NCBI RefSeq assembly: GCF_017255295.1 | Contig: NZ_JAFKDE010000014.1 | Coordinates: 1 to 64,000 of the forward strand | DNA length: 64,000 nt | Reading direction: 5' to 3' | From: Nitratireductor aquimarinus | GTDB lineage: Bacteria > Pseudomonadota > Alphaproteobacteria > Rhizobiales > Rhizobiaceae | The notes under the pieces: model-generated | The model's database searches: none | What the model was told of the DNA's origin: nothing | The model's input: the letters and a program-made list of their open reading frames with translations, nothing else | Program-made: the position numbers and the translations under genes | In this document: one piece after another, positions 4,586 through 23,495 of the stretch | How positions within the stretch are numbered: the stretch's first letter is position 1 | Layout of the letters: each line of letters starts with the position of its first letter

Positions 4586-4602
4586 TCAAAAGGGAGAAGT
4601 AA

Positions 4603-5583: not shown

Positions 5584-5589
5584 TGCTTC

Positions 5590-5620
5590 CGGGCCGGTCC
5601 AAGACCGGCCCGTTTTCTTT
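5590..5620 (+). terminator. Rho-independent terminator
   Basis: A perfect 10-bp GC-rich stem (CGGGCCGGTC / GACCGGCCCG) with a 3-nt loop, followed by TTTTCTTT, 6 bp after the binding-protein stop. It also separates the operon from the convergent gene. Confidence 0.93.
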
Positions 5621-5676
5621 CCAGTCGTGAAAGCACATCTAAAAAGGCAGAGCAGTCGCCGCCGGTGATCGGCCTG

Positions 5677-6749: not shown

Positions 6750-6802
6750 GCCGACGAGATAGCAGCGTCGATTCCCGCAAGCAAGGTTGTTTGAATGATT
6801 GT

Positions 6803-6820
6803 ATTACGGTATACCATAAT
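6803..6820. promoter_or_regulatory. Candidate GntR operator (ATTACGGTATACCATAAT)
   Basis: An 18-bp palindrome with a single mismatched pair, centred on GGTATACC, lying in the divergent intergenic region 54 bp upstream of the gntR start and 36 bp upstream of the AA_synth start. It shares the CGGTAT half-site with 1863-1880. Confidence 0.65.
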
Positions 6821-6855
6821 CAACACCAACCGTTCGAATCAACCGGGAGCTGCGA

Positions 6856-8242: not shown

Positions 8243-8350
8243 TCCGCACACTCACCGCAAAGCGTTGATCAAGGCGTACAAGAGAAAGGCCGTGTTCTTC
8301 GAAACAGAGCACGGCCGCAACGTCCCTTTCCCAAGATTGCGAGAGAAACG

Positions 8351-9799
8351 ATGATCCCCCTTGATCGACCCGACCTTCTCATTTCGGATGCGTTCATCGC
8401 CGGAGACTGGCGCCGCACCGACCGGGCTTTTCCGGTGACGAACCCTTCCACGGGAGCAAAGCTGGCCGATGTCGCGGATTGCACACGCGACGATGTTCGC
8501 CGCGCCATATCGGCGGCCGCGCCAGCGCAGAAAGTCTGGGCGCGTTGCACCGCAAAAGAGCGCGCCGGCATCCTGCGCCGCTGGTTTGACCTGATCGTCG
8601 ATCATGCCGACGACCTGGCGGCCATCCTGACGGCTGAAATGGGAAAGCCGCTGGCTGAAGCGCGCGGCGAGATTCTCTATGGCGCAAGCTTTGTCGAGTG
8701 GTTCTCAGAAGAAGCCAAACGCATCTACGGGGAAACCATACCGGGGCATCATGAAGACAAGAGGCTGATGGTGATCAGGCAGCCTGTTGGCGTGGTTGGC
8801 GCAATCACCCCCTGGAACTTCCCCAATGCGATGATCACGCGCAAAGTCGCGCCAGCGCTTGCCGCCGGCTGCGCCATTCTGGTCAAACCGGCAACCGAAA
8901 CACCGCTTTCCGCCCTCGCGCTCGCAAAGCTGGCCGAACAAGCAGGCCTGCCTCGGGGACTTCTTTCCGTTCTCCCGTCGACAGACAGTGTCGGCGTGGG
9001 ACTGGAGTTCACGGAAAACCCGACCATTCGCAAGATCAGCTTCACCGGCTCGACCAATGTGGGGCGCATTCTGATGCGCAACGGGGCAGACCAGATCAAG
9101 AAACTGTCGCTTGAGCTCGGCGGCAATGCGCCATTCATCGTGTTTGACGATGCCGACCTCGACGCCGCCGTGGAAGGCTGCGTCACCTCAAAATTCCGCA
9201 ATGCAGGACAGACCTGCGTTTGCACAAACCGCATCTATGTTCAGGATGCCGTCTACGATGCGTTTGTCGAGAGATTGAGCAAAGCCGTATCCAGCCTGCA
9301 GGTTGGCGATGGTTTCCTGGAAGGCTGCGCGGTCGGCCCGCTGGTGAGCCATTCTGCGATGGACAAGGTTCGCGCCCATATCGACGACGCGCTGGAAAAA
9401 GGGGGCACGGTGGTTCTGGGCGGCGCGCCGCATGACCTCGGCGGCACGTTCTTCCAGCCGACCGTCCTGCGGGACGCCACACCTCAGATGGCCGTTGCAA
9501 AAGAAGAGACGTTTGGGCCTCTGGCGCCGGTCTTCCGCTTCTCCACTCTGGAAGAGGTGGTGGAGGCTGCCAATGATACGGAATTCGGTCTCGCATCCTA
9601 TGTTTACAGCCGCGACCTCAGCCGCGTCTGGAGAATGATGGAAGAACTCGAATACGGCATGGTCGGCGTGAACACCGGCCTGATTTCAACGGAAGTCGCG
9701 CCGTTCGGGGGCATCAAGCAATCGGGTCTCGGCCGGGAAGGCTCCCGCCACGGGATCGAGGACTATCTGGAAATGAAATATTGCTGCCTGGCGCTGTGA
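8351..9799 (+). CDS. NAD(P)-dependent aldehyde dehydrogenase, succinate-semialdehyde dehydrogenase type
   Basis: Full-length ALDH of 482 residues, closest in pattern to GabD-like enzymes that oxidise succinate (or glutarate) semialdehyde. Landmarks: TPWNFP at about 153-158, GSTNVGR coenzyme loop, catalytic Glu255 in LELGGNAP and nucleophile Cys289 in AGQTCVC, and the C-terminal FGGIKQSGLGREG. It lies 108 bp after the hydrolase, with a weak hairpin in the gap (GGCCGTG/CACGGCC from 8289), and is likely part of the same pathway, feeding succinate to the TCA cycle. Confidence 0.9.
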   Translation: MIPLDRPDLLISDAFIAGDWRRTDRAFPVTNPSTGAKLADVADCTRDDVRRAISAAAPAQKVWARCTAKERAGILRRWFDLIVDHADDLAAILTAEMGKPLAEARGEILYGASFVEWFSEEAKRIYGETIPGHHEDKRLMVIRQPVGVVGAITPWNFPNAMITRKVAPALAAGCAILVKPATETPLSALALAKLAEQAGLPRGLLSVLPSTDSVGVGLEFTENPTIRKISFTGSTNVGRILMRNGADQIKKLSLELGGNAPFIVFDDADLDAAVEGCVTSKFRNAGQTCVCTNRIYVQDAVYDAFVERLSKAVSSLQVGDGFLEGCAVGPLVSHSAMDKVRAHIDDALEKGGTVVLGGAPHDLGGTFFQPTVLRDATPQMAVAKEETFGPLAPVFRFSTLEEVVEAANDTEFGLASYVYSRDLSRVWRMMEELEYGMVGVNTGLISTEVAPFGGIKQSGLGREGSRHGIEDYLEMKYCCLAL

Positions 9800-9884: not shown

Positions 9885-10820
9885 CTATTTGTCCTCGTAG
9901 CGCTTCGGCGGCAGGTCGATGCCGCTTTGGGCAGCATAGAGCTTCATGAGCGCAATATCCCCCTCGCGCCCCATGCCCTCGGCAGAAGCCGCGCGGTAGC
10001 GTTCAAGTGCCGCCTGCGAAACCGGCAGGTCGAGTTTCGCGCCGGATGCCGCATCGGTGACAATGCCCAGATCCTTGACGAAAATGTCGATCGCCGAATG
10101 CGGTCGGTAATCGCCATCTGTGATGTACGGCCCCCGGTTCTCGAACATCCACGACGAGCCGGCGCAGGCGGGAATGACCTGCATGATCTGATCCGCATCC
10201 AGCCCCTGCGCGATGCCGAAGGAAAATGCTTCCGCTGCGGCGGCGATATGAATGCCGGCCAGAAGCTGGTTGACGCTTTTCATCGCCGACCCCGGCCCGG
10301 CCCGGTCGCCCAGCCGGAAGACTGTTTCAGCCATGGCGTCCAGCGCTGGTTGTGCTTTCTCAAAGGCTTCCGCCGAGCCTGAGGCCATGACCGAAAGCTT
10401 GCCCTGCGCCGCGCGCGCGGAGCCGCCCGAGATCGGGGCGTCGAGATAAAGAATGCCCTTTTCCGCGAGCTCCTGCTCGAACGCAATGGCCTGCTGCGGG
10501 TCAATGGTGGCGCAACTGATCACCACCGCACCCGGCTTCAGCATTGCGGCAAGACCGTTCGCACCGAACAGGGCCTCACGCGTCTGCGCGGCGTTAACGA
10601 CGACGAGAATGGCGCCATCGGCTTCGCCGGCAGCCACCACCAGCGGGCGGTCTCGCCCGGCCTCAGCCCGGAAGCGCGCCTGCGTATCACCATTCAAATC
10701 GAAACCATCCGCGCCCAGACCGGCGCGCAGCAGCGAACTGCCCATGCCATAGCCCATCGCGCCGAGACCGATCAGAAGGAAGTTTCCGGCGGCGTTGTCC
10801 TGCACTGCTGTGTTCATCAT
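9885..10820 (-). CDS. ltnD: L-threonate dehydrogenase-like beta-hydroxyacid dehydrogenase
   Basis: NAD-dependent 3-hydroxyacid dehydrogenase of 311 residues. A Rossmann motif is near the N-terminus (LIGLGAMGYGMGSSLL), the substrate motif DAPISGGSARAAQGKL lies near 120-140, and the catalytic lysine is in GSAMKSVNQLLAG (about 180-190). The pattern and its pairing with a denD-like gene fit LtnD, which oxidises L-threonate to 2-oxo-tetronate. The kinase (otnK), decarboxylase (otnC) and isomerase (otnI) of the known four-carbon acid pathways are not in the window, so the true substrate may differ. Its ATG overlaps the denD stop (ATGA). Confidence 0.8.
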   Translation of the reverse strand: MMNTAVQDNAAGNFLLIGLGAMGYGMGSSLLRAGLGADGFDLNGDTQARFRAEAGRDRPLVVAAGEADGAILVVVNAAQTREALFGANGLAAMLKPGAVVISCATIDPQQAIAFEQELAEKGILYLDAPISGGSARAAQGKLSVMASGSAEAFEKAQPALDAMAETVFRLGDRAGPGSAMKSVNQLLAGIHIAAAAEAFSFGIAQGLDADQIMQVIPACAGSSWMFENRGPYITDGDYRPHSAIDIFVKDLGIVTDAASGAKLDLPVSQAALERYRAASAEGMGREGDIALMKLYAAQSGIDLPPKRYEDK

Positions 10821-11809
10821 GCCTGCTCCGCATCTGTTGCGTAATCTTCGAGATAGGCGCGCACGATCGCTTCAAACGACTCGTCGGCCTCAAAACCGAG
10901 TTTGAGCGCCCGGTCGGCTTCAAACGCCTGGGGCCATGTGGAGAGGATCGCCTCAATGGCCGGGTCTTTTTCGTGACGGATGAGGGCAACGGCGGCATCG
11001 CCGGCTATGGCGCGCAACGCCTCGATCTCATCGGCCACGGTTGCCGAAACGCCGGGCATGGTCATGTTGCGCCGCCCGGCGAGCAATTCGCTGCTGACTG
11101 CTGCCGCATGGGCCATGAAGCCGATTGCCGCGCGGGGGCTGGCGAACCAGTGCCGCATGGATGTATCGACCGGAAGGATGGCCGGTAGTCCGGCCAGCGG
11201 TTCACGCAGAATGCCGGAATAGAAGCTGGAAGCTGCAGCATTCGGCTTTCCCGGTCGAATGCAGATGGTCGGCAGGCGGATGCCGATGCCGTCGAAGAAG
11301 CCGCGCCGGCTGTAGTCTGCAAGGAGAAGTTCGCCGATGGCCTTCTGGGTGCCATAGCTGGAGTGCGGCGTGATGATGTGGTCATCGCCAATCACATCGG
11401 GCAGTGGCGATCCGAAAACCGCCAGCGACGAGGTGAAGACCACGCGCGGGCAGTATCCGTCTTCTTCATTGGCCTTGCGTATCGCCTCGAACAGATTGCG
11501 GGTGCCATCCAGATTGATGCGGTAGCCCTTTTCGAAATCCCGCTCCGCCTCGCCCGATACAATGGCCGCCAGATGGAAGATCACGTCAGGACGGGAAGCA
11601 ACGAGCTGCTCCGCCGTTTCCACGGCCGAGATATCGCCCGCCTCAACCGTGACACTTATCTCTTCCACGTGAGGCGCATGGGCTGGTACGATATCGAACA
11701 GCGTCAGCCGTCCGATTTTGCGGCCTCCGATTTCGCCATCCTTTACGAGGCGCTTTGCCAGCCCGTCGCCGAGCATGCCGGCCGCGCCGATGATAAGGCA
11801 GTGAAGCAT
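10817..11809 (-). CDS. denD: D-erythronate dehydrogenase-like SDR (NAD-dependent epimerase/dehydratase family)
   Basis: Extended SDR protein of 330 residues. The NAD-binding GAAGMLGDGL is at residues 8-17, the FHLAAIVSGEAE pattern follows, the catalytic Ser lies in FTSSLAVFG and the YxxxK motif is YGTQK. This matches DenD, which oxidises D-erythronate. It is translationally coupled to the ltnD-like gene and begins 61 bp after the ferredoxin reductase, so all three may be read from the promoter near 13.2 kb. Both dehydrogenase names rest on family resemblance; in this neighbourhood they may act on a related hydroxyacid. Confidence 0.8.
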   Translation of the reverse strand: MLHCLIIGAAGMLGDGLAKRLVKDGEIGGRKIGRLTLFDIVPAHAPHVEEISVTVEAGDISAVETAEQLVASRPDVIFHLAAIVSGEAERDFEKGYRINLDGTRNLFEAIRKANEEDGYCPRVVFTSSLAVFGSPLPDVIGDDHIITPHSSYGTQKAIGELLLADYSRRGFFDGIGIRLPTICIRPGKPNAAASSFYSGILREPLAGLPAILPVDTSMRHWFASPRAAIGFMAHAAAVSSELLAGRRNMTMPGVSATVADEIEALRAIAGDAAVALIRHEKDPAIEAILSTWPQAFEADRALKLGFEADESFEAIVRAYLEDYATDAEQA

Positions 11810-11870
11810 TTCACAGAACTCCGGATGATTTTGTGCGACTGTCGCCTCAGCCGCGCAATGTGTGAAGGGC

Positions 11871-13103
11871 TTAGTTCGCCTTGAAGGCGCTGATCAGTTG
11901 CTTGAGGCGCTGGGCGCCCTCCGCGATATCCGCAGCCGAAGGGTTGATGCCAGCTCCAAGAAGTCGGCGCGCGATCATGTGGTCGGCTGGCCTGTTGATG
12001 GAATCGACGGCGACCAGTTTCTCACCCCTGAAATGATAGACGGAGAAGGCATTGTCTTCGGAAGCGCCGGAAACGATGAGACTGTCTGCGCCCGCCGCCA
12101 GCCCCGCGGTCTGGATCTTCATGTCCCCCTGATCGGACCAGAACCAGGCAACCTCGGCATAGGGCCGGCCACCGCCGGTGAGAACCCGAGCGATGTGCCG
12201 CGCATGGTCGGTGGCGTTCTGCACCGATTCCAGCCGCACCCGCTCACCAAGCTGATGGTGATCAAAACTCACGCAATCGCCAATGGCGTAGATATGCGGT
12301 GCTGAACTGCGCAGGTTCGGATCGACAACGACGCCATTCGCAACCTCAAGCCCCGCCTCGGCGGCAAGTTCCACATTGGGCACGGCACCGATGCCCATCA
12401 CGACCATATCAGCGTCGAAGCGGCGGCCATCTGCGGTGGAAACTGCAACGACCTTTCCACCCTCGCCATGGATAGCGGCAAGCTGCGCAGAGGTGATCAG
12501 ATCGATACCGGCGGAGCGGCTGCGCTCTTCCACGTGAGCGGAAACGACCGGCGCGACAGAGCGGGCAAGCACGCGCGGTGCAGCCTCGATGAGGGTGACC
12601 GACTTGCCAAGGCCGATGCAGCTATGCGCCATTTCCATGCCGATGAAGCCGCCACCGACGATCACGACATTTTCAACCATCGGCATTGCCGCGCGGATGC
12701 GGCGGGCGTCTTCCATGGTGCGCAGCGTGACGATGCCGTCAAATTCCATTCCGGGAAGCTGTGGCATGCGAGCGCGTGCGCCCGTCGCCAGAACGAGATC
12801 GGTAAACGCGAGCTCTCGTCCATCTGCAACGATCAGGCGCTTGCCATCCACGTCGATCCGCTCGGCATGCACGCCGAGCTCCAGTTCGACGGCATTGTCG
12901 CGATAGACGGCTTCGGTGCGCAGCACCAACCCTTCTCCATCGGGCGTTTTCAGGTAGGATTTCGACAGCGGCGGACGGTGGTAAGGCAGATCCTTTTCAT
13001 CGCTGACCAGCACGATCTCGCCGGAATATCCCTCCTGGCGCAGACTGACAGCAGCCTGCGAGCCACCGTGCCCGCCGCCCACGATGATGCATCTCTCAAC
13101 CAT
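11871..13103 (-). CDS. FAD-dependent ferredoxin (rubredoxin) reductase
   Basis: Flavoprotein of 410 residues of the putidaredoxin-reductase type, passing electrons from NAD(P)H to a 2Fe-2S ferredoxin. The N-terminal FAD motif is IIVGGGHGGSQAA, then HRPPLSKSYL, a second dinucleotide fold VVIVGGGFIGMEMA at about 145-158, and APHIYAIGDC near 285. ATG 13103 is chosen over an upstream start because GGAGGTG lies 6 nt before it. Its likely partner is the adrenodoxin-type ferredoxin at 20395. No cytochrome P450 or Rieske oxygenase lies between, so the terminal acceptor is elsewhere or unrecognised. Confidence 0.88.
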   Translation of the reverse strand: MVERCIIVGGGHGGSQAAVSLRQEGYSGEIVLVSDEKDLPYHRPPLSKSYLKTPDGEGLVLRTEAVYRDNAVELELGVHAERIDVDGKRLIVADGRELAFTDLVLATGARARMPQLPGMEFDGIVTLRTMEDARRIRAAMPMVENVVIVGGGFIGMEMAHSCIGLGKSVTLIEAAPRVLARSVAPVVSAHVEERSRSAGIDLITSAQLAAIHGEGGKVVAVSTADGRRFDADMVVMGIGAVPNVELAAEAGLEVANGVVVDPNLRSSAPHIYAIGDCVSFDHHQLGERVRLESVQNATDHARHIARVLTGGGRPYAEVAWFWSDQGDMKIQTAGLAAGADSLIVSGASEDNAFSVYHFRGEKLVAVDSINRPADHMIARRLLGAGINPSAADIAEGAQRLKQLISAFKAN

Positions 13104-13252
13104 AAACACCTCCGCTGAAAGCTCCGGCACAAAGACCCGCGCCAGAGCAATCTCAAGCAGCCCGCTTACCGCGCTATTTGCACGTTTCGCTCTCCCTCGA
13201 GGGGCCGCAGGACATTTCGTTGCATATTTCCAACGTCATTTAAACAATTAGT

Positions 13253-13283
13253 TTGACCGATCGGTCAGATCAGTTAGTAATAT
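13253..13283 (+). promoter_or_regulatory. Promoter overlapped by a RutR/TetR-type operator palindrome
   Basis: TGACCGATCGGTCA (13254-13267) is a perfect 14-bp palindrome in the 344-bp divergent region. TTGACC (13253-13258) can act as a -35 box, with TAGTAA or TAATAT at about 13275-13283 as the -10. Repressor binding would thus block the rightward promoter. The known RutR consensus is TTGACC-N4-GGTCAA, which this site matches except for the last base; a RutR-like gene lies in the same operon at 19641. Confidence 0.7.
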
Positions 13284-13289
13284 TGCTCA

Positions 13290-13447
13290 GAACATCGTTC
13301 CAACCCCCATGGAACGCAGGGAGGAAGCCTTCAGTTTCAGAGATGGGGAAGTCGCTTCGGCGGTGTGTGGAGGCACACCGCCATGTGGGGCGGCTTGGCG
13401 TCTTGCCGTGGCGAGACTGCACGGAACATGAGGGAGGAATACTGATT
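13290..13447 (+). promoter_or_regulatory. Structured 5' leader of the creatininase-ABC operon
   Basis: Between the promoter and the TTG start lie about 160 nt with several perfect hairpins: CGTTCCA/TGGAACG (13294-13314, 7-nt loop ACCCCCA), GGCGGTGTG/CACACCGCC (13359-13382, 6-nt loop) and a weaker GTCTTG/CGAGAC stem near 13409. The first loop (CCCCAT, 13303-13308) is complementary to ATGGGG at 13342-13347, so a pseudoknot is possible. I could not match it to a known riboswitch by eye. Confidence 0.4.
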
Positions 13448-14260
13448 TTGAAGAGATATTGGTCGGACTATACGAGCGAAGAGTTTTCCCGGCTTGATCG
13501 AGGCAACATGGTGGCGGTTCTGCCTGTCGGCGCGACAGAGCAGCATGGACCCCATCTGCCCCTGTCGGTGGATGCCGCGATCGTCAGCGGAATGGTTTCG
13601 GCCATCGTCGAGCGATTACCGGAAACAAGCCGGACCCTGTTTCTGCCAACCCAGCCGATCGGCAAAAGCAATGAGCATGCGCGTTATCCCGGCACGCTGA
13701 CCTTTTCGGCACAGACACTCATTTCCATGTGGTGCGAGATTGGAGCCTGCGTCGCCGCCAGCGGTGTGCGCAAGATGGTGCTGCTCAACAGCCATGGCGG
13801 GCAGATCAGCGTCATGGACATCGTTGCGCGCGAACTGCGCCAGCGCCACGGCATGATGGTGTTTTCCGTCAACTGGTTCGGACATGGCCTGCCGGACGGC
13901 CTTTATGACGCGCATGAAACGCTGCACGGCATTCATGCCGGCGACATGGAGACATCGGTGATGCTTGCCATGCATCCCGATCTGGTCGTGATGAGCAAGG
14001 CGCAGAACTTCGCCGCCCTTACCGAAACCTTCGCCAGCGAATATCGCCACATCTCGCTGGCGGGCGCAAAGCCCGGCTGGCAGATGCATGACATCAATCC
14101 CTTCGGAGCTGCCGGCAACGCCACGGCGGCGACCGCAGAGAAAGGTCACCAGACAATCGATTATGCAGCCGACCGTCTCGTCGAAGTGCTCGCCGAGGTG
14201 GAGCGCGCGCCTTTGACCTGGCTCGACAACAATCCTGCCTGGGGTGAGGAAGCACAATGA
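13448..14260 (+). CDS. Creatininase family amidohydrolase
   Basis: Metal-dependent hydrolase of 270 residues. Likely metal ligands are Glu31 and His33 in TEQHGPHLP, Asp42, the His of LLNSHGGQ (about 115) and the Glu of HAGDMETS (about 177). The family opens cyclic amides (creatinine) or hydrolyses other amides and ketone rings; the substrate is not readable. The frame is open back to 13253 but that part contains the operator, so the start is downstream: TTG 13448 has GGGAGG 10 nt before it and yields the usual KRYW...LPVGATEQHG start. Its TGA overlaps the next ATG (ATGA). Confidence 0.85.
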   Translation: MKRYWSDYTSEEFSRLDRGNMVAVLPVGATEQHGPHLPLSVDAAIVSGMVSAIVERLPETSRTLFLPTQPIGKSNEHARYPGTLTFSAQTLISMWCEIGACVAASGVRKMVLLNSHGGQISVMDIVARELRQRHGMMVFSVNWFGHGLPDGLYDAHETLHGIHAGDMETSVMLAMHPDLVVMSKAQNFAALTETFASEYRHISLAGAKPGWQMHDINPFGAAGNATAATAEKGHQTIDYAADRLVEVLAEVERAPLTWLDNNPAWGEEAQ

Positions 14261-15060
14261 GAGCAGCAGCTACGACCGGCTCGCAGCCACTGATCGAAAT
14301 CAAGAACGTCTACAAGCAGTATGGAACGGGCATTGTGGCTGTCAGCGACATGTCACTCTCCATTGAGGACGGTCAGTTCGTCAGCTTCCTTGGCCCCTCC
14401 GGCTGCGGCAAGAGCACTGCACTGCGCATGATCGCCGGCCTGTCCGAAGTGTCCGCCGGGTCGATCACGGTGAACGGCCATGCGCCGGGAAGCAGTTCCG
14501 GGCCGCAGGACGTCGCGTTCGTGTTTCAGGAGCCGACGCTCATGCCCTGGGCATCGGTGTTCGACAATGTTTACCTGCCGCTGCGTCTTGGCGGCATGTC
14601 GCGTGCGCAGGCAGCGCCGCGCGTCGAGGAGGTGCTGGCGCAGGTGGGGCTGAGCAAGTTTGCGAAAGCCTATCCGCGCGAACTTTCGGGCGGCATGAAG
14701 ATGCGTGTCTCGATTGCGCGCGCAATCGTGACCAAGCCCCGCCTTCTGCTGATGGACGAGCCGTTCGCCGCGCTCGATGAAATGACCCGCTTCAAGCTCA
14801 ACAACGACGTTCTGCGTCTGTGGCAGGAGCACGGGCTGACGGTCATCTTCGTGACCCACAGCGTTTATGAGTCGGTCTATCTGTCCAACCGCGTCGTGGT
14901 GATGGCCGCAAGGCCCGGGCGCGTGGTCGACGATATCGCCATTCCGGGAAGCTACCCCCGTGCGGACAATTTCCGCGCCACCCGCGAATACACCGAAAGC
15001 TGTGAAATCGTCTCTGACGCGCTCAACCAGACGCTCGGCAATGACGACATCAACCATTGA
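14257..15060 (+). CDS. ABC transporter ATPase (SsuB/TauB/ThiZ family)
   Basis: Complete ATPase of 267 residues: Walker A GPSGCGKST (about 45-53), Q-loop VFQEPTLMPW, signature LSGGMKMRVSIARA, Walker B LLMDEPFAALD, and H-loop FVTHS. It powers the permease encoded immediately downstream together with the NMT1-like binding protein at 18569. The ATGA overlap with the creatininase gene shows one operon. The family imports sulfonates, nitrate, thiamine precursors or other heterocycles; the neighbours favour a nitrogen heterocycle. Confidence 0.93.
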   Translation: MRAAATTGSQPLIEIKNVYKQYGTGIVAVSDMSLSIEDGQFVSFLGPSGCGKSTALRMIAGLSEVSAGSITVNGHAPGSSSGPQDVAFVFQEPTLMPWASVFDNVYLPLRLGGMSRAQAAPRVEEVLAQVGLSKFAKAYPRELSGGMKMRVSIARAIVTKPRLLLMDEPFAALDEMTRFKLNNDVLRLWQEHGLTVIFVTHSVYESVYLSNRVVVMAARPGRVVDDIAIPGSYPRADNFRATREYTESCEIVSDALNQTLGNDDINH

Positions 15061-15070
15061 GGGCCGCGCC

Positions 15071-15904
15071 ATGACAACCGAGACGCCAGTACTCAATTCA
15101 GAACAGAACCGCCGCGCCCGCATCGAGCGCCGCAAGGCGGTCATCATGCCGACAATGGCCATCATCATCGCGCTTCTCGTGTGGGAAGGGCTGGTGCGCT
15201 ACCATGAGGTCCCTCACTACATCATCCCCGCACCGTCGCTGATCGCGCAGACGCTGGTGAAGGACTGGTCTTCGCTGATGAGCTCGATGATGTTCACGGT
15301 GAAGCTGACCATGCTTTCTCTGCTCTGCGCCATTGCCGGCGGCGTTCTGATGGGCATGATCTTCGCTCTATCGCGCACCGTGGAAATGAGCTTCTTTCCC
15401 TTTGCGGTGATCCTTCAGGTCACGCCGGTCGTGGCGATTGCGCCGCTGATCCTCATCTATGTGCATGACACCTTCACAGCGCTGCTCATCTGCGCCTGGA
15501 TCGTGGCCTTCTTCCCGATCCTGTCGAACACCGTGATCGGCCTGCGCAGCGCCGATCACAACCTGCGCGACCTGTTCAAGCTCTATCGCGCCACGCCCCT
15601 GCAGCGCCTGCGCTTTCTGCTCGCGCCCAGCGCCCTGCCCTATTTCATGGCAGCGCTGAAAATCGCCGGCGGTCTGGCTCTGATCGGGGCCGTGGTGGCG
15701 GAGTTCGTCGCGGGCACCGCCGGTCAGAACACGGGGCTCGCCTCGCGCATTCTGGAATCCAGCTTCCGCAACGAGATACCGCGCATGTTTGCCGCGCTGT
15801 TCCTCGTCTCGGTTCTCGGCATTGTCATCTTCCTTGCAACGAGCTGGCTGTCGCGCCTCGTGCTTGGTCGGTGGCATGAAAGCGAAATCCGCCGGGAGGC
15901 CTGA
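15071..15904 (+). CDS. ABC transporter permease (SsuC/ThiX family)
   Basis: Inner-membrane permease of 277 residues with about six hydrophobic segments and the ATPase-docking EAA loop (GLRSADHNLRDLFKLYRATPLQRL). ATG 15071 lies 10 bp after the ATPase stop and gives a short basic N-terminus before the first membrane segment; an upstream ATG at 15041 is also possible. It works with the ATPase at 14257 and the binding protein at 18569. Confidence 0.9.
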   Translation: MTTETPVLNSEQNRRARIERRKAVIMPTMAIIIALLVWEGLVRYHEVPHYIIPAPSLIAQTLVKDWSSLMSSMMFTVKLTMLSLLCAIAGGVLMGMIFALSRTVEMSFFPFAVILQVTPVVAIAPLILIYVHDTFTALLICAWIVAFFPILSNTVIGLRSADHNLRDLFKLYRATPLQRLRFLLAPSALPYFMAALKIAGGLALIGAVVAEFVAGTAGQNTGLASRILESSFRNEIPRMFAALFLVSVLGIVIFLATSWLSRLVLGRWHESEIRREA

Positions 15905-15906
15905 GC

Positions 15907-17160
15907 GTGTACAAAGGCCACGACATTCCACACGTTTCTGCGCCGGATGGGACATTGCGCCTGTCAGGCGTGGGCGTGGCCGGACTTCCCGGACGCCACG
16001 ATGTCGTGGTGAAGGATGGGGTTATCGCCGATATCGTTACGGTGCCCCCCGGCGAGGCCGAAAAGGCACACGGCGGCTTCATCACGCCGCTTCTGGCCGA
16101 TGTGCATGTTCACCTCGACAAGACCCACACCATCGCAAGGATCAGGGCCGGCAGTCCGGCCCCGATCCAGTCCCTGTTCGACGCCATTGCGCTGATGGAA
16201 GAAGACAGGCCGAACTGGTCGGCAGCCGATATCCGCGCGCGGGCCTTGCGCGCGCTCGAAGCGGCCTTCGCCCATGGGGTCGGCGCCCTGCGCAGCCATG
16301 TGGACTGGGTAACGCCGGAAGTGCCTGACGCATGGCCCATCATTTGCGAATTGCGCGAAGAATGGAAAGGCCGGATCGACCTGCAACCGGCAGCCCTCGT
16401 TCTGGGAGATATCGTACCGGAGGCCGGAAGCGCCATTGCGGCGCGGGTCGCGGATGACGGCGGCGTGTTCGGTGCCTTCTTCTACCGCAACGCAGATCTG
16501 GCGGCGAAGGTTGAAACCATGTTCACCCTTGCCGCGCGCCATGACCTCGACCTCGATTTCCACATCGATGAAGGGCTGGAGCCGGAAGCCGACGGGCTGT
16601 CGCTCGTGATCGACGCCACAGCGCGTTTCGGCATGGCCGGTCGCGTTCTGTGCGGCCATGCCTGCTCCCTGTCGCTGCGACCGGCAGACGAACTGGAGCG
16701 GATTTTGGCGGCTGGCGCGCGCGCAGGCGTGGCGCTCGTTACCCTGCCCTCCACAAACCTCTACCTGCAGGATCGCGGAAACGGCCGCACGCCAAATCTT
16801 CGCGGCCTCGCGCCGCTGAAGGAAGCACGCGCGGCGGGCATGGAAGTGATGATCGCTTCCGACAATGTCGGCGACGCCTTCTACCCCTACGGCGATTACG
16901 ACCCGCTGTCCGTTCTGCGGCTGGCCGTGCCAGCCGCGCATCTGGAAACGGACGCCTGGCTGGACAGCATTACCTCACTGCCCTCCCGCAAATGCGGAAG
17001 CAGCATTTCAGGGCTCATCGAAAAGGGCATGCCGGCCGACTTCATCTGGCATGCCGCAACAGACATGGGCGACCTCATCAGCCGGCCCCGCAGCGAACGC
17101 ATTGTCTATCGGAGCGGTACGCCGCTGCCGACGGCAACCAACGACTGGAGAAACACATGA
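15907..17160 (+). CDS. Cytosine deaminase-like amidohydrolase
   Basis: Amidohydrolase-superfamily enzyme of 417 residues, close to the 427 of E. coli CodA. Metal ligands follow the CodA pattern: His67 and His69 in DVHVHLDKTH, the HIDEG segment at about 218-222 (His and the catalytic Glu), GHACSL, and the Asp of SDNVGD. It should deaminate or hydrolyse a pyrimidine- or triazine-like ring. GTG 15907 starts 2 nt after the permease stop, and the stop overlaps the ATG of the FAD oxidase. A cytosine deaminase inside a creatininase/NMT1 operon suggests sequential ring deamination and opening. Confidence 0.88.
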   Translation: MYKGHDIPHVSAPDGTLRLSGVGVAGLPGRHDVVVKDGVIADIVTVPPGEAEKAHGGFITPLLADVHVHLDKTHTIARIRAGSPAPIQSLFDAIALMEEDRPNWSAADIRARALRALEAAFAHGVGALRSHVDWVTPEVPDAWPIICELREEWKGRIDLQPAALVLGDIVPEAGSAIAARVADDGGVFGAFFYRNADLAAKVETMFTLAARHDLDLDFHIDEGLEPEADGLSLVIDATARFGMAGRVLCGHACSLSLRPADELERILAAGARAGVALVTLPSTNLYLQDRGNGRTPNLRGLAPLKEARAAGMEVMIASDNVGDAFYPYGDYDPLSVLRLAVPAAHLETDAWLDSITSLPSRKCGSSISGLIEKGMPADFIWHAATDMGDLISRPRSERIVYRSGTPLPTATNDWRNT

Positions 17161-18539
17161 ACCTCGCGACCAAGCCCGCGCGCGCCTATGACTGGGCCGC
17201 TTTCCGCAGCGAGATCGATGGCATTCGCGTCTATGACGATCCGAAACAGGTCGAGCTGCGCTCCCGCGATTACTTCTGGTACAGCCCCATCCTCAGCGAG
17301 GATATCGGCCATTTCGTCGGCGATCTCGTCGTCATCCCCGCAGATGAGGAAGAGGTGCGCCGCGTGGCGGCAGCGGCGGCCCGGCTGCGCATCCCGATCA
17401 CCATCCGTGGCGGCGGAACCGGCAATTACGGCCAGTGCGTTCCGCTGGAAGGCGGCATCATTCTCGACATGACCAAAATCGACAGGGTGCTGTCGATAGA
17501 GCCGGGCCGTGTGCGGGTTCAGGCTGGTGCGCGCATCGCCCGGCTGGACGACGCGGTGCGCGAAACAGGCCAGGAACTTCTGATGTACCCGTCGACACGG
17601 CGCATCGCCACCATTGGCGGCTTCTTCACCGGCGGCTCGGGCGGCATCGGTTCGCTGCGTCATGGCATGCTGCGCGACGATGGCAACATCTATTCGGTGA
17701 AGGTCATGACGCTGGAGCCAGAACCGAAAATCATCGAGCTGCACGGCCACGACATCCAGAAGGTGCAGCATGCCTATGGCACCAACGGCATTGTCATGGA
17801 ACTGGAGATCGGCCTGACCGAGAAGACGGACTGGATTCACACCGCCGCCCTCTTCGACAGCTATGATGCAACGCTTCGCTTCTGCCTCAAGGCGCTGGAA
17901 GAGAAACTCGACTGCTATCTGCTGACCACCGTGGATCGCCGCTTCTCGCGCTTCTACACCAAGTTCGGAGACCTGTTCCCGGCAGACCGCGACGCGGTGT
18001 TCGCGATGATCGCGCCCGAAGAGCAGGAGCGCTTTGCCGAACTGGCGGCATCGTTCGGCGGGCGCGTTTCCTTCAGCATGACGCAGGACGAGCTTCACGC
18101 AAACGGGCTGCAACCTGCATATGAATGCGGCTGGAACCACACCACCCTGCAGGCGCTGAAAGCCGAGGAAGGCTGGACCTACCTGCAGGTCGCCTACCCG
18201 CGCCCCTTCGATCCCGAGACCGTCATGCGCCAGATGGAGCGCTATGGCGACGACCAGTACATGCATCATGAAATGGCGCGGCTGGAAGGCGAAGTGCAGA
18301 TCTTCGGCCTGCCGCTGGTCCGCTACAAGGACCGCGATGACACCTATCAGGTTATCCGCGAACTCGAAGAGCTGGACGGTTGCGACATCTACGATCCGCA
18401 CGCTTTCACCATTGAGGATGGTGGAATGAAGCAGATCGACACCATGCAGATCGAATTCAAGAAACTGGCCGATCCCTTTGGCCTGCTCAACCCTGGCAAG
18501 ACCCGTGGCTGGACGGCCGACATGGCCGCCAAAGACTGA
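17157..18539 (+). CDS. FAD-binding (PCMH/VAO-type) oxidoreductase
   Basis: Flavoprotein of 460 residues with an FAD_binding_4 domain at about 50-220: ITIRGGGTGNYGQCVPLEGG, GRVRVQAGARIARL and TIGGFFTGGSGGIGSLRHG. The C-terminal half, less conserved, ends in FGLLNPGKTRGW as in GlpD/GlcD-like and glycolate-oxidase-like enzymes. It likely oxidises an alcohol, hydroxyacid or ring carbon of the pathway intermediate. The frame runs open far upstream inside the amidohydrolase gene, but ATG 17157 is supported by the ATGA overlap and the family N-terminus. Confidence 0.85.
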   Translation: MNLATKPARAYDWAAFRSEIDGIRVYDDPKQVELRSRDYFWYSPILSEDIGHFVGDLVVIPADEEEVRRVAAAAARLRIPITIRGGGTGNYGQCVPLEGGIILDMTKIDRVLSIEPGRVRVQAGARIARLDDAVRETGQELLMYPSTRRIATIGGFFTGGSGGIGSLRHGMLRDDGNIYSVKVMTLEPEPKIIELHGHDIQKVQHAYGTNGIVMELEIGLTEKTDWIHTAALFDSYDATLRFCLKALEEKLDCYLLTTVDRRFSRFYTKFGDLFPADRDAVFAMIAPEEQERFAELAASFGGRVSFSMTQDELHANGLQPAYECGWNHTTLQALKAEEGWTYLQVAYPRPFDPETVMRQMERYGDDQYMHHEMARLEGEVQIFGLPLVRYKDRDDTYQVIRELEELDGCDIYDPHAFTIEDGGMKQIDTMQIEFKKLADPFGLLNPGKTRGWTADMAAKD

Positions 18540-18568
18540 ACCGAAGAACGAATGGGAGTGAAGTTCTT

Positions 18569-19579
18569 ATGAAAAGCATGCACAAAGTCGCAATGACCGC
18601 AGCAGCTCTTGTGGTCTCCACGCAATTCGCCATGGCGCTGGACAAGGTTACGTTCGGCACCAACTGGCTGGCTCAGGCCGGCCATGGCGGTTTCTATCAG
18701 GCCGTGGCCGACGGCACTTACGAGAAATACGGTCTCGACGTCACCATCGAGATGGGTGGCCCGCAGGTCAACAACCGGCCGATGCTCGCCGCCGGCCGGC
18801 TGGACTTCCTGCTCACCGGCAACCTGCTTTTGTCCTTCCACAACAACGCCAATGACATTCCCACCACCGTCATCGCTTCCTTCTATCAGAAGGATCCGCA
18901 GGCGCTGATGGCGCATGAAGGCGCTTACAAGGACTTTGAAGACCTCACCAATGCGCCTTCCGTGCTGATCGCCAAGGACACCCAGTATGGTCTGTGGCGC
19001 TGGCTGGTCAGCGATTTCGGCTTCAAGGACGAGCAGATCCGCCCCTATGGCTACAGCCTCGCCCAGTTCCTGAGCGACCCAAAAATGGTTCAGCAGGCCT
19101 ACGCCACCGCCGAACCGCTTTATGCCAAGAAGGAAGGGGCTGACGTCGCCACCTATCTGCTGGCCGACTATGGCTACAGCACTTACGCCAACACGATCGA
19201 AACCCGTACGGATCTGGTCGAGAACAATCCTGATCTTGTTCAGCGCTTCGTGGATGCGAGCATCATCGGCTGGAACAACTTCCTCTATGGTGATCGCAGC
19301 AAGGCCTATGAGCTGATCATGCAGGACAATCCCGACATGAGCGCCGAGACGCTCGATGGCGAGATCGAGATGCTCAAAAAGCTGGAGATGATCGACAGTG
19401 GCGACACGCTGGAAAAAGGCATCGGCGCGATGTCGCTTGACCGTGTGAAGCAGTTCTACGAACTTGCAGTCAAATCGGGTATCGTCGAGGATGGCAAGAT
19501 CGACATTTCGGAAGTTGCAACCGACGCATTCGTCAACAAGGGCGTCGGGCTCGATGTGAAGAAGCAGCTCAACCCATAA
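18569..19579 (+). CDS. ABC transporter substrate-binding protein, NMT1/THI5-like
   Basis: Periplasmic binding protein of 336 residues with a signal peptide at 1-24 (…FAMA|LDKV). The mature start LDKVTFGTNWLAQAGHGGFYQAVADGTYEKYGLDV is the NMT1 (THI5-like) pattern, typical of proteins binding pyrimidines and other heterocycles. It has normal length. Its ribosome site GGGAG lies in the 13-nt loop of a small hairpin (AAGAAC 18544-18549 / GTTCTT 18563-18568) immediately before the ATG, which may tune translation relative to the permease. It partners the ATPase and permease at 14.3-15.9 kb. Confidence 0.9.
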   Translation: MKSMHKVAMTAAALVVSTQFAMALDKVTFGTNWLAQAGHGGFYQAVADGTYEKYGLDVTIEMGGPQVNNRPMLAAGRLDFLLTGNLLLSFHNNANDIPTTVIASFYQKDPQALMAHEGAYKDFEDLTNAPSVLIAKDTQYGLWRWLVSDFGFKDEQIRPYGYSLAQFLSDPKMVQQAYATAEPLYAKKEGADVATYLLADYGYSTYANTIETRTDLVENNPDLVQRFVDASIIGWNNFLYGDRSKAYELIMQDNPDMSAETLDGEIEMLKKLEMIDSGDTLEKGIGAMSLDRVKQFYELAVKSGIVEDGKIDISEVATDAFVNKGVGLDVKKQLNP

Positions 19580-19599
19580 ACGCAAAACGGAAAGTGGAG

Positions 19600-19624
19600 T
19601 GATGGGCAGCCGTTCTGCCCATCA
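19600..19624 (+). terminator. Hairpin between binding protein and TetR genes
   Basis: TGATGGGCAG / CTGCCCATCA, a perfect 10-bp stem with a 5-nt loop, 20 bp after the binding-protein stop, followed by CCTTTG. It is probably an attenuating terminator that lowers expression of the regulator. Confidence 0.6.
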
Positions 19625-19640
19625 CCTTTGTGCAAAGGCA

Positions 19641-20300
19641 ATGACGCAGCAAAACGCTGAAAATCAGGAAACTCAGACGTCGCGCGCCAGGGACAAGGTT
19701 CTCGAGCGGCGGCGCATGATCCTTGCAACCATTCGCGATGCAGCAATCGATGAGTTTGCCAGCAAGGGTCTCATCGGCGCCTCCACGCAGGCTATTGCCC
19801 AGCGTGCCGGGCTGACGAAACCCCAACTGCATTACTACATCTCCAGCAAGGAAGAGCTGTATGAGGACATACTGGTCTATATCCTCGACGAATGGCAGGA
19901 GCTGTTTCTCAGCGCCTCCACCGGTGACACGCCTGCAGACGTGATCCGCGCCTATGTGCACAAGAAGCTCGAATATGGACGCAGGAACCCCAACGCGTCG
20001 CGTCTCTTCACCACCGAGATAGCCAATGGCGCGCCCGTGCTGGGCCGTCACTGGGCCCCCTATCAGGCCTCAACCCGCGAAGCGGTCGGGCTGATCCAGT
20101 CCTGGGTCGATCAGGGGCTGGTCAGAGCGGTCGACCCTCTGCTGTTCCAGATGCATATCTGGGCGGTTACCCAGCATTATGCGGATTTTGATGTTCAGGT
20201 CCGCAACATGATGAATCTGGATGAGGGCGAGGAGCCGGACTACGGGCAGATCGAAAAAGAGGTCACGTCCCTTTTCCTGCGCGCACTAGGCATCGAATAG
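19641..20300 (+). CDS. TetR family regulator, RutR-like
   Basis: Repressor of 219 residues: N-terminal helix-turn-helix at about 20-65 (GLIGASTQAIAQRAGLTKPQLHYYISSKEELY) and a C-terminal domain like that of E. coli RutR (YcdC), recognisable from TEIANGAPVLGRHW and HIWAVTQHYADFDVQV. RutR senses uracil/thymine and binds TTGACC-N4-GGTCAA. The palindrome at 13254-13267 fits, so this protein likely represses the operon it ends and perhaps the leftward genes. The start is placed at ATG 19641, after the hairpin; the frame is open to 19599. The effector is probably the ring substrate or a product. Confidence 0.9.
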   Translation: MTQQNAENQETQTSRARDKVLERRRMILATIRDAAIDEFASKGLIGASTQAIAQRAGLTKPQLHYYISSKEELYEDILVYILDEWQELFLSASTGDTPADVIRAYVHKKLEYGRRNPNASRLFTTEIANGAPVLGRHWAPYQASTREAVGLIQSWVDQGLVRAVDPLLFQMHIWAVTQHYADFDVQVRNMMNLDEGEEPDYGQIEKEVTSLFLRALGIE

Positions 20301-20394
20301 CCTTCCTCTTCCCACCCTGCAGACAAAACAATCCGGGCCGCAGCAGTCAAAACGGCCGCGCCCTTAATCACACAAGACCCGAAAGATCACTCCC

Positions 20395-20715
20395 ATGGCA
20401 CGCATCATCTATGTGACCCACGACAACCAGCGTTTCGAGCATGATGCTGAAAACGGGTCCTCAGTCATGGAAGCCGCCGTGCGTGCCGGCGTTCCCGGCA
20501 TCGAGGCTGAATGCGGCGGGGCCTGCGCCTGCGCAACCTGCCACGTCTACGTAGAGCCGGAATTCATGAACACGGTTGGCGAAGCTGACGGCATGGAAAC
20601 CGATATGCTCGATTTTGCCTGGGAGCCATCGGCCAACTCGCGCCTCTCCTGCCAGTTGACGGTAACCGACGCGCTTGATGGCCTGGTGGTGCGCGTTCCC
20701 GCACGTCAGGGCTAG
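20395..20715 (+). CDS. 2Fe-2S ferredoxin, adrenodoxin/putidaredoxin type
   Basis: Ferredoxin of 106 residues. The cluster cysteines are in CGGACACATC (C-x5-C-x2-C, about 42-51) and the fourth in RLSCQL (about 88). The acidic MLDFAWE helix matches the docking helix of adrenodoxin-type proteins that serve cytochromes P450. It lies 94 bp after the RutR-like gene and may be read from its own promoter. With the reductase at 11871 it makes a complete electron-transfer pair, but the oxygenase they serve is not in the window. Confidence 0.92.
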   Translation: MARIIYVTHDNQRFEHDAENGSSVMEAAVRAGVPGIEAECGGACACATCHVYVEPEFMNTVGEADGMETDMLDFAWEPSANSRLSCQLTVTDALDGLVVRVPARQG

Positions 20716-20999
20716 AGCGGGCCACGAGGCAGCTTTGCGGAAATGCCTGCGGCTGCGTTCCAGCGCGCAGGCTGACGCCGCGCAGACAAGCCATGCAAAT
20801 CGCCGCCATTTATTATGATAACCACCATCAAGAATAAATTAGATAAAACCTGCCCAGAAATCCCCATTCTCTAAGATATTCTGATTTATCCCCTATTTAA
20901 TATTTGCATATTCATTGTATTGCTGCGCTTATCCTGATCATTTAAGTGTCTGGAAATTGTGTTGAAATTGGCTGCATAGAATGGGCGGGCGAAAGAAAA
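20716..20999. other. AT-rich intergenic boundary
   Basis: This 284-bp gap is markedly AT-rich from about 20810 to 20945, unlike both flanks, and carries several AT stretches suited to promoters. No gene, repeat or insertion end is visible. It marks a change from the catabolic block to a lower-GC group of secreted and membrane proteins. Confidence 0.5.
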
Positions 21000-22343
21000 A
21001 TGATCGGCAAACTTGGCAATTTATTCGCGAGCGCCATGTTGGCGCTGTTTGTAGCCAGCCCCCTTCAGGCACAAAATATCTCTTCGAACGCAGTCGTTTT
21101 TGAAAATGTTCGCATTTTCGACGGGGCTGCCTTGACCGAGCCAATGAACGTGCTGGTCGAAGGAAATCAGATCGCAGAGATATCAGCTGACCCGATCAGT
21201 ACGGACGCGGCCACCACACGGATCGCGGGCGATGGTCGGACGCTGATGCCAGGGCTGATCGACGCCCACTGGCATACGTTCATGGTCCGCCCCTCGATGA
21301 TGGTTGCGTCAACTGCACCATTTCCCTTTATCACCCTGCTTGCGGGCGCCGAGGCTGAGGCAACGCTCATGCGCGGCTTCACAAGTGTTCGTGATTTGGG
21401 TGGGCCCGCATTCGGCCTGAAGATGGCTATTGACAGAGGCGTGACCCGCGGGCCGCGGATCTGGCCGTCCGGGGCCATGATCTCGCAGACTGGCGGGCAC
21501 GGTGATTTCCGGATGCTTTCCGAAATTCCGGCCACACCGGACACCTTGAGCTATCCTGAACGTATGGGCATGTCCGCCATCGTTGACTCGCCGGACGAGG
21601 TTCGCAAGCGCAGTCGGGAGCAATTGCTGCAGGGCGCCAGCCAGCTCAAATTAACCGTTAGCGGTGGGGTCTCGTCCCCCTATGGGCCAATCGACACAAT
21701 CCAGTTGAGTGTTGACGAAATCCGGACAGCGGTCGAAGCCGCTGCAAACTGGGGCACTTATGTAACAGTGCACGCCTACACGCCAGAAGCCATACGCAAC
21801 GCCATCGAGGCTGGCGCAAAAGTCATCGACCACGGCCAGCTGGCTGATGAGGCCACCGTCAAGATGATGGCTGAAAACGGTACGTGGTGGAGCCTTCAAC
21901 CCTTCGTTGGCGATGAGAATGCAAACCAGCATGCGGATGCCGAACGTCAGGCCGCCTCAGCCGAGATTCACGCCGGCACCGACAGGGCATATGAGCTGGC
22001 GCGCAAATATGGCGTTAAGGTCGCCTTCGGCACGGATATCCTGTTTGATGCCGCACGCGCCGCAAGACAGGGCGCGCAGCTTGAGACAATGACGCGGTGG
22101 TACACTCCGGCAGAGGTGCTGAAGATGGCGACGGCAGACAATGCTGAGCTGTTGGCCCTGTCTGACAGGCGTAATCCCTATCCGGGAAAGCTGGGCGTCG
22201 TTGAAGTCGGGGCGCTTGCCGACCTGCTTCTGGTCGATGGTGATCCAATCGCTCAGATCGACCTGTTTGCAGATCCCGCCAAGAATCTGCTGGTCATCAT
22301 GAAGGACGGTCGTATCGAAAAGAACATCGTCGCGGAGAACTGA
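21000..22343 (+). CDS. Secreted metal-dependent amidohydrolase (imidazolonepropionase-like)
   Basis: Amidohydrolase of 447 residues with a Sec signal peptide (1-24, …SPLQA|Q). ATG 21000 is chosen over the open frame upstream because it places the signal peptide at the start. The DAHWH motif has His90 and His92, the likely carbamylated Lys is in LKLTVSGG, further ligands are in VHAYT and IDHGQL, and the Asp in AFGTDI. Members of this periplasmic group hydrolyse prolidase-like peptides, lactones or hydantoin-like rings. No operon partner is obvious except the outer-membrane protein at 22481. Confidence 0.85.
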   Translation: MIGKLGNLFASAMLALFVASPLQAQNISSNAVVFENVRIFDGAALTEPMNVLVEGNQIAEISADPISTDAATTRIAGDGRTLMPGLIDAHWHTFMVRPSMMVASTAPFPFITLLAGAEAEATLMRGFTSVRDLGGPAFGLKMAIDRGVTRGPRIWPSGAMISQTGGHGDFRMLSEIPATPDTLSYPERMGMSAIVDSPDEVRKRSREQLLQGASQLKLTVSGGVSSPYGPIDTIQLSVDEIRTAVEAAANWGTYVTVHAYTPEAIRNAIEAGAKVIDHGQLADEATVKMMAENGTWWSLQPFVGDENANQHADAERQAASAEIHAGTDRAYELARKYGVKVAFGTDILFDAARAARQGAQLETMTRWYTPAEVLKMATADNAELLALSDRRNPYPGKLGVVEVGALADLLLVDGDPIAQIDLFADPAKNLLVIMKDGRIEKNIVAEN

Positions 22344-22480
22344 CAAAGCCGGTCGGGCAGCCCTGGTGTTGCTCGCGGGGTTCTTTTCAGGCCGGTGTTC
22401 AGGGCCGTTTTTTTGATCGTTGGATCAGCCATCGAGCCGCAATGGTCAAGGCAGATGCGCTGGGAGTTTAGGCTGATAAT

Positions 22481-23425: not shown

Positions 23426-23495
23426 AGAACATTTCAATTCACTTGAAATGTGAAAATCATTGGCTTCGGCTCGGATCTAAGTTTTGGGGTTTTTG

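What the first reader, a model, noticed from the sequence alone, without database searches (positions are those of the whole stretch)
9885..20715. Candidate undescribed catabolic regulon for a nitrogen-ring compound under a RutR-like repressor
Around one palindromic operator, leftward genes (ferredoxin reductase, denD-like, ltnD-like) and rightward genes (creatininase-family hydrolase, NMT1-type ABC importer, CodA-like amidohydrolase, FAD-linked oxidase, RutR-like regulator, adrenodoxin-type ferredoxin) form a set I do not recognise as any described pathway. Family knowledge suggests import of a heterocycle, deamination, cyclic-amide hydrolysis and oxidation. The assignment to one pathway and its substrate are inference. 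The two halves of an electron-transfer chain sit at opposite ends, but the oxygenase is missing.
Basis: partly seen in the sequence, partly recalled or inferred. Interest (0 to 1): 0.72.

Follow-up and report, generated by a model that had tools for sequence, protein, structure and literature searches.

The report
Probable pterin-type heterocycle import-and-breakdown regulon
A bacterium carries a self-regulated gene cluster that probably imports and breaks down a pterin-like ring compound (the ring family of folic acid), together with enzymes for the four-carbon sugar acids that neopterin and monapterin could release, so a pathway not yet described becomes directly testable.

Summary
In detail: at 9885-20715 two divergent operons flank a palindrome. 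In 50 fetched loci the rightward core (creatininase-family hydrolase, ABC importer, CodA-like deaminase, FAD enzyme, binding protein, RutR-like repressor) recurs, each member in 44-50; the divergent ferredoxin reductase in 39; denD plus ltnD in 7. The palindrome is kept in 33 of 41 loci examined.

The substrate class comes from the FAD enzyme: best structural match PDB 6v42, titled a flavin oxygenase "involved in folate catabolism" (42% identity). Closer relatives of 6v42 (63-75%) sit in nine clusters I read from the same order, with the same core and, in eight, RidA. I read the window cluster as a sister version for pteridine-class compounds. denD and ltnD fit: opening neopterin's or L-monapterin's pyrazine ring so that C6 leaves with the side chain gives D-erythronate or L-threonate (my derivation). 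In six of the seven denD/ltnD loci otnK, otnC and otnI follow; in the window's genome they lie on another contig.

No oxygenase partner for the ferredoxin pair is near (one P450 in 50 loci). Substrate and steps are inference. New variant of a barely described kind.

The parts
9885..10820 (-). ltnD: L-threonate dehydrogenase
   Evidence: NF043037 385.7 bits, cut-off 350; with denD in 7 of 50 loci
10817..11809 (-). denD: D-erythronate dehydrogenase; the only one found in the genome at E <= 1e-60
   Evidence: NF043036 386.5 bits, cut-off 325; one own match
11871..13130 (-). FAD-dependent ferredoxin reductase, HcaD/Reductase_C type (annotated start in pOM-1 corresponds to 13103)
   Evidence: present in 39 of 50 loci
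13253..13268 (.). palindromic operator TTGACCGATCGGTCAG, RutR-type half-sites, in the divergent promoter region
   Evidence: (33 of 41 loci)
13448..14260 (+). creatininase-family hydrolase (TTG start)
   Evidence: PF02633 2.9e-72; 46 of 50 loci
14257..15060 (+). ABC importer ATPase
15071..15904 (+). ABC importer permease (start after the annotation of pOM-1)
15907..17160 (+). CodA-like amidohydrolase, proposed pterin deaminase (annotated start in pOM-1 corresponds to 15955)
17157..18539 (+). FAD_binding_4 flavoenzyme, relative of 6v42 'flavin oxygenase involved in folate catabolism'
18569..19579 (+). NMT1/THI5-type substrate-binding protein, nearest folds ThiY and a thiamin-binding protein
19599..20300 (+). 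RutR-like TetR-family repressor
20395..20715 (+). adrenodoxin-type 2Fe-2S ferredoxin
   Evidence: 11 of 50 loci

Best explanation
A substrate-inducible regulon that imports and degrades a pteridine-class heterocycle, a sister of the 6v42-type ('folate catabolism') cluster found in the same order. SHOWN (sequence, conservation): one conserved unit with a conserved RutR-type operator; flavoenzyme, deaminase, hydrolase and importer homologous, gene by gene, to the 6v42-type cluster; denD/ltnD joined to it in seven loci. INFERRED: the ABC importer brings in a pterin; the amidohydrolase replaces the 2-amino group by oxygen (pterin to lumazine type); the flavoenzyme oxygenates and opens the pyrazine ring; RidA, where present, clears the enamine; the creatininase-family enzyme hydrolyses the remaining cyclic amide; the RutR-like protein releases the operator on binding an intermediate. 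Where the pterin carries a trihydroxypropyl chain, the chain plus ring carbon C6 leaves as a tetronate: neopterin (1'S,2'R) gives D-erythronate (2R,3R), L-monapterin (1'S,2'S) gives L-threonate (2R,3S), the substrates of DenD and LtnD; OtnI, OtnK and OtnC then lead to dihydroxyacetone phosphate (pathway recalled). FdR and ferredoxin feed an unidentified redox step, perhaps the flavoenzyme.
For: Flavoenzyme model best match 6v42 (E 2.5e-42, TM 0.88); phmmer 9.8e-117. 6v42 is 63-75% identical to the flavoenzymes of nine clusters of the same order (all nine that I fetched, chosen because hydrolase and deaminase lay close together), which have the same core and a flavodoxin-like protein, eight of them RidA. 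Nearest binding-protein folds are ThiY (formyl-aminopyrimidine) and a thiamin-binding protein. Deaminase keeps the CodA metal ligands but not the cytosine-binding glutamine. denD+ltnD in 7 of 50 loci (Mesorhizobium, two of them one species; Aminobacter; Nitratireductor; Paenochrobactrum; Frigidibacter); otnK/C/I follow in 6. The own genome's single denD is here, otnK/C/I on contig C8. Across the order denD lies within 20 kb of the deaminase in 10 of 75 genomes, the window's own included (about 0.7 expected); control HIBADH 0 of 71. Operator conserved. Bacterial pterins are excreted, and neopterin and monapterin differ at 2' (PMC13259868, passages).
Against: 'Folate catabolism' for 6v42 is only an entry title; no paper was found. 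The window flavoenzyme is 42% identical to 6v42 and in another clade, so the substrate may differ. Relation of the deaminase to known pterin deaminases could not be tested (one search found none). 43 of 50 loci lack denD/ltnD. The ten denD-near genomes fall in four families; in the nine other than the window's, and in one more at 22.5 kb, the regions read show no otnK/C/I. No RidA in the window cluster. The genome of L107 keeps deaminase and importer but has no such flavoenzyme at all. One 6v42-type cluster carries an 8-oxoguanine-deaminase-like gene, leaving purines possible. Opening of the pyrazine with C6 leaving with the chain is my proposal.
Confidence: 0.5

Rival explanations
1. The substrate is a non-pteridine pyrimidine or purine (8-oxoguanine, a thiamine-type aminopyrimidine, an unusual nucleobase); denD and ltnD are hitch-hiking sugar-acid genes that serve free erythronate and threonate from plant material.
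For: RutR-like regulator and half-sites; binding-protein folds closest to ThiY; an 8-oxoguanine-deaminase-like gene inside a 6v42-type cluster; most loci lack denD/ltnD; L-threonate is a common breakdown product of ascorbate (PMC12540250 and PMC11066805, abstracts in the listings).
Against: 6v42 is titled for folate; denD/ltnD/otn share the operator-bearing divergent promoter region in records of several genera (the site itself is degenerate in L069 and L076); order-wide denD enrichment with a clean control.
Confidence: 0.28
2. A classical three-component oxygenase system: FdR and ferredoxin serve a P450 or Rieske oxygenase encoded elsewhere, which makes the first attack on the heterocycle.
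For: The own genome has P450s on three contigs and two Rieske proteins of oxygenase size; its second CRE-DEAM-FADOX cluster on C8 does carry a Rieske oxygenase next to ferredoxin and FdR.
Against: Of 50 loci only L103 has a P450 hit and none a Rieske hit in the flanks; five loci without either lack FdR yet keep the core flavoenzyme, hydrolase, deaminase, importer and regulator (L076, L101, L139-L141).
Confidence: 0.15
3. Creatinine, hydantoin or cytosine utilisation, as the family names suggest.
For: PF02633 and PRK07583 similarity.
Against: Creatininase 92.9 bits against cut-off 235 and cytosine deaminase 345.4 against 403; cytosine-binding glutamine replaced; flavoenzyme and DenD/LtnD unexplained.
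Confidence: 0.07

Closest known systems
Cluster around relatives of 6v42 ('flavin oxygenase involved in folate catabolism'), e.g. Rhizobium etli CIAT 652 plasmid pC and Rhizobium tumorigenes
   Same: Binding protein, ATPase, permease, deaminase, flavoenzyme in that order, plus creatininase-family gene and RidA
   Different: There a flavodoxin-like oxidoreductase and a LysR regulator (L137, L142); here RutR-like repressor, divergent FdR, ferredoxin, denD/ltnD; flavoenzyme 42% identical to 6v42
Pterin deaminase route of folic acid breakdown in Variovorax sp. F1 (PMC9513972; passages and section 8 read)
   Same: An amidohydrolase that deaminates the pterin ring, with an 'endoribonuclease' gene (RidA's old name, my reading) downstream
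   Different: No flavoenzyme, importer or regulon described there in what I read; homology to the window enzyme not tested
Rut pyrimidine pathway (E. coli RutR regulon)
   Same: RutR-like regulator, TTGACC half-sites, RidA-family partner in relatives
   Different: None of the window cluster's genes was assigned to RutA or RutB in the scans; RutR equivalog cut-off missed (137.7 of 368)
D-erythronate/L-threonate pathway (DenD, LtnD, OtnI, OtnK, OtnC)
   Same: DenD and LtnD equivalogs; otn genes follow in six loci
   Different: Joined to a heterocycle regulon instead of a sugar-acid operon
Riboflavin/lumichrome catabolism (PMC12746152; abstract, sections 10-11 and passages read)
   Same: Stepwise breakdown of a fused pyrimidine ring; a TPP enzyme
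   Different: Different genes; the lumichrome part begins with a P450

Membership tests
6v42-type flavin oxygenase cluster | Flavoenzyme homologous over its full length | tested here: met
   phmmer 9.8e-117 over residues 5-443 of 450 given; TM 0.88
6v42-type flavin oxygenase cluster | Same clade as 6v42 | tested here: not met
   42% identity; separate clade
6v42-type flavin oxygenase cluster | Importer, deaminase and creatininase-family gene alongside | tested here: met
6v42-type flavin oxygenase cluster | Acts on folate or pterins | not testable with these tools
   entry title only
Cytosine deaminase (CodA) | Metal and catalytic residues | tested here: met
   H67, H69, H219, E222, H251, D319 invariant in 16 sequences (CodA roles recalled)
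Cytosine deaminase (CodA) | Glutamine that binds cytosine (Q156, recalled) | tested here: not met
   Leu in the window, not conserved
Cytosine deaminase PRK07583 | Curated cut-off 403 bits | tested here: not met
   345.4 bits
Creatininase (TIGR04448) | Curated cut-off 235 bits | tested here: not met
   92.9 bits
RutR (TIGR03613) | Curated cut-off 368 bits | tested here: not met
   137.7 bits
RutR | TTGACC...GGTCA operator (consensus recalled) | tested here: met
   conserved in 33 of 41; binding itself not testable
D-erythronate dehydrogenase | NF043036 cut-off 325 | tested here: met
   386.5 bits
L-threonate dehydrogenase | NF043037 cut-off 350 | tested here: met
   385.7 bits
Aliphatic sulfonate binding protein (TIGR01728) | Curated cut-off 163.5 bits | tested here: not met
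   20.4 bits; SsuA folds appear lower in the fold search
P450/Rieske electron-transfer system | Oxygenase in the cluster | tested here: not met
   P450 hit near 1 of 50 loci, Rieske hit near none (own-genome proteins as BLAST queries, modest sensitivity, some loci cut by contig ends)
Pterin deaminase (Arad3529, Variovorax PDA) | Orthology to the tested enzymes | tested here: inconclusive
   primer pattern found in 0 of 399 genomes; no reference sequence held

The most novel reading that the evidence does not exclude
A dedicated bacterial pathway for neopterin and monapterin: an ABC pterin importer, a pterin deaminase and a ferredoxin-fed VAO-fold flavoenzyme that opens the pyrazine ring so that ring carbon C6 leaves with the side chain as D-erythronate or L-threonate, which DenD/LtnD and OtnI/K/C take to central metabolism, all under a RutR-like sensor of a pteridine. 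It would also remove the excreted pterins that relatives of these bacteria use as signals.
Probability: 0.25. Interest if true: 0.78.

Novelty: new variant of a known kind. Interest (0 to 1): 0.6.

Why it matters
Bacteria excrete pterins, and a 2026 review says that how pterins cross the membrane is unknown; its main text holds no word beginning 'catabol' or 'deaminase' (PMC13259868, find). This cluster offers a testable pterin importer, ring-opening enzyme set and regulator, a source for the tetronates that DenD and LtnD use, and a function for a widely shared gene set, often on plasmids, now annotated as cytosine deaminase, creatininase and FAD oxidoreductase. In Agrobacterium, where a pterin controls biofilm formation through PruR and DcpA (abstract passage), such a pathway could quench the signal.

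Tried and rejected
Creatinine, hydantoin or cytosine as substrate (cut-offs and active site). Rut pathway proper. Sulfonate import. A hidden P450 or Rieske gene in the flanks (the first script took wrong frames for the P450s and was redone). Riboflavin/lumichrome route: read parts of PMC12746152 because its breakdown includes a TPP enzyme and four loci carry a TPP-enzyme-like gene (L099, L102, L136, L138); the gene set differs otherwise. Finding the Variovorax pterin deaminase by its published primer: 0 of 399 genomes. Linking 6v42 to a paper by its code: none. An early impression of about 52% identity to 6v42, in my notes, was wrong; it is 42%. Promoter and terminator scans gave nothing. Ten paper searches (listings seen) gave no description of this set; the library holds open-licence papers only, so this says little about subscription journals.

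Selection and dropped rows: the nine 6v42-type clusters (L114-L119, L121-L123) were picked by eye from 104 genomes with a deaminase match, as genomes where the hydrolase lay on the same contig nearby. The 44 loci come from a scan with the deaminase, the six plasmid loci from a scan with the flavoenzyme (6 fetched of 139 records). The operator count took L069-L109 and L112 plus the window; L105 and L107 had no hydrolase gene and L110-L111 were not examined. The denD list and the control list were cut by the tool at 150 places; expectations assume 5 Mb genomes; the window's own genome is one of the ten hits.
Full report
WHERE. The window is contig C14:1-64000 of a 4.57 Mb genome. Bases 119-24900 match plasmid pOM-1 of Nitratireductor sp. 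OM-1 (Phyllobacteriaceae) at 98.9%, so the host is Nitratireductor or very close, and the cluster is probably plasmid-borne as it is there.

OBSERVATION. Family scans confirm every named gene. LtnD and DenD pass their equivalog cut-offs. The hydrolase starts at 13448 (TTG; homologues of the window type begin LKRYW, MKRYW, MKRFW or MTRYW; annotated start in pOM-1), so the palindrome 13253-13268 lies 195 bp upstream of it and 120-150 bp upstream of the ferredoxin reductase.

UNIT AND BOUNDARIES. A scan of the genome-contig collection with the deaminase gave 44 loci. With six plasmid loci found with the flavoenzyme that makes 50: deaminase 50, flavoenzyme 47, hydrolase 46, ATPase 46, permease 46, binding protein 45, regulator 44, ferredoxin reductase 39, RidA 39, ferredoxin 11, flavodoxin-like protein 8, DenD and LtnD 7 each, OtnK, OtnC and OtnI 6 each (score thresholds set by me in the script). 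Many loci are close relatives (Brucella/Ochrobactrum-type records) and several are cut by contig ends, so counts are not independent events. Close homologues of the SSADH on the left and the second amidohydrolase on the right recur only in pOM-1, which fixes the ends.

OPERATOR. TTGACC-N4-GGTCAA, at 11 or more of 12 scored positions, lies between reductase and hydrolase in 33 of 41 loci at -63 to -285, mostly as TTGACCRATCGGTCAG. The eight others score 8-10, among them the denD/ltnD loci L069 and L076. The longest word the window's intergenic region shares with the others includes a half-site in 38 of 40 loci, up to 34 bases; against shuffled sequences the longest chance word was 9 to 13 bases, so the nine cases with 11 bases prove nothing by themselves. 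Exact TTGACCNNNNGGTCA occurs at three places in the genome, the other two inside ORFs: a local switch. Its first half-site resembles a -35 box (TTGACA), which would suit repression, though a consensus promoter scan found nothing.

SUBSTRATE CLASS. The flavoenzyme model (mean pLDDT 80.7) matches 6v42, 'flavin oxygenase with cofactor bound involved in folate catabolism'. I found no paper on it. 6v42 is 63-75% identical to the flavoenzymes of nine clusters from the order (L114-L119, L121-L123), 48-50% to L106 and L120, and 42% to the window's. Those nine clusters carry binding protein, ATPase, permease, deaminase, flavoenzyme, flavodoxin-like protein and hydrolase; RidA was seen in eight, not in L119. 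Deaminase homologues at E <= 1e-60 occur in 104 of 297 genomes of the order. R. etli pC has a urea amidolyase gene upstream and isochorismatase-family genes downstream of its copy. The deaminase is CodA-like with the metal site kept and the cytosine-binding glutamine lost. The binding protein (pLDDT 88.5) is closest in fold to ThiY and a thiamin-binding protein at 16-17% identity, and far from SsuA by profile. Against a fixed partnership: the genome of L107 has deaminase and importer but no such flavoenzyme.

FOUR-CARBON ACIDS. DenD and LtnD are joined to the cluster in L069, L070, L071, L076, L094, L095 and pOM-1 (besides the window itself); L070 and L094 are one species. In the first six, OtnK, OtnC and OtnI follow LtnD (layouts of L069, L070 and L076; family names by scan of L095). 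The window's genome keeps otnK/C/I at C8:240446 onward, and its only DenD at E <= 1e-60 is in the cluster. Neopterin is (1'S,2'R), monapterin (1'S,2'S) (recalled; a review passage confirms that they differ at the 2'-hydroxyl). If C6 becomes the carboxyl carbon, CIP priorities at C1' swap and at C2' stay, giving (2R,3R) D-erythronate and (2R,3S) L-threonate (acid descriptors recalled). Across the order, DenD lies within 20 kb of the deaminase in 10 of 75 genomes that list both, the window's own included, against about 0.7 expected, and the control HIBADH in 0 of 71. Against this: the ten genomes fall in four families (f1, f16, f27, f50), and outside the window's genome none of the regions read (L117/L151, L152-L160) shows otnK/C/I, and only L153 a weak LtnD-like hit (30%). 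In L104, L136 and L138 a D-2-hydroxyacid (glyoxylate/glycerate-type) dehydrogenase takes the place of DenD/LtnD, which would fit a shorter side chain; this is a guess.

ELECTRON TRANSFER. No P450 or Rieske hit in the flanks of 49 of 50 loci; L103 has a P450. The own genome has P450s on three contigs and two Rieske proteins of oxygenase size, one inside a second CRE-DEAM-FADOX cluster on C8 with its own ferredoxin and reductase (L120). So either the ferredoxin pair serves the flavoenzyme or the partner is elsewhere. Of the 47 loci with the flavoenzyme, eight lack the reductase (L076, L101, L103, L105, L106, L139, L140, L141), five of which have the flavodoxin-like protein; L102, L104 and L138 have both, so replacement is only a tendency.

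VERDICT.

Noticed in passing
window 1962-9799: A separate set of genes: TRAP transporter with TAXI binding protein, carboxymuconolactone-decarboxylase-like and GntR genes, alpha/beta hydrolase, SSADH (names from pOM-1).
   Followed up: no
window 20946-25175: Amidohydrolase with weak similarity to a Caulobacter Xaa-Pro dipeptidase model, next to a Phenol_MetA_deg family gene and an Abhydrolase_9 protein.
   Followed up: no
L120 (own genome C8:158500-178000): Second, divergent CRE-DEAM-FADOX cluster with Rieske oxygenase, ferredoxin, reductase, RidA, a D-amino-acid-dehydrogenase-like gene and a fused hydantoinase/caprolactamase-type protein.
   Followed up: partly
L102:5073-7451, L099:3207-5660, L136:14434-16764, L138:1521-3820: A large TPP enzyme, weakly AceE-like, recurs beside the cluster in 4 of 50 loci; a TPP-dependent heterocycle decarboxylase is known from lumichrome breakdown (PMC12746152, section 11).
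   Followed up: partly
L114:10782-12125: 8-oxoguanine-deaminase equivalog (651.9 bits, cut-off 532) between RidA and the creatininase-family gene of a 6v42-type cluster.
   Followed up: no
plasmid searches: Flavoenzyme and deaminase homologues are also counted on a few Klebsiella (4) and Pantoea (5) plasmids.
   Followed up: no
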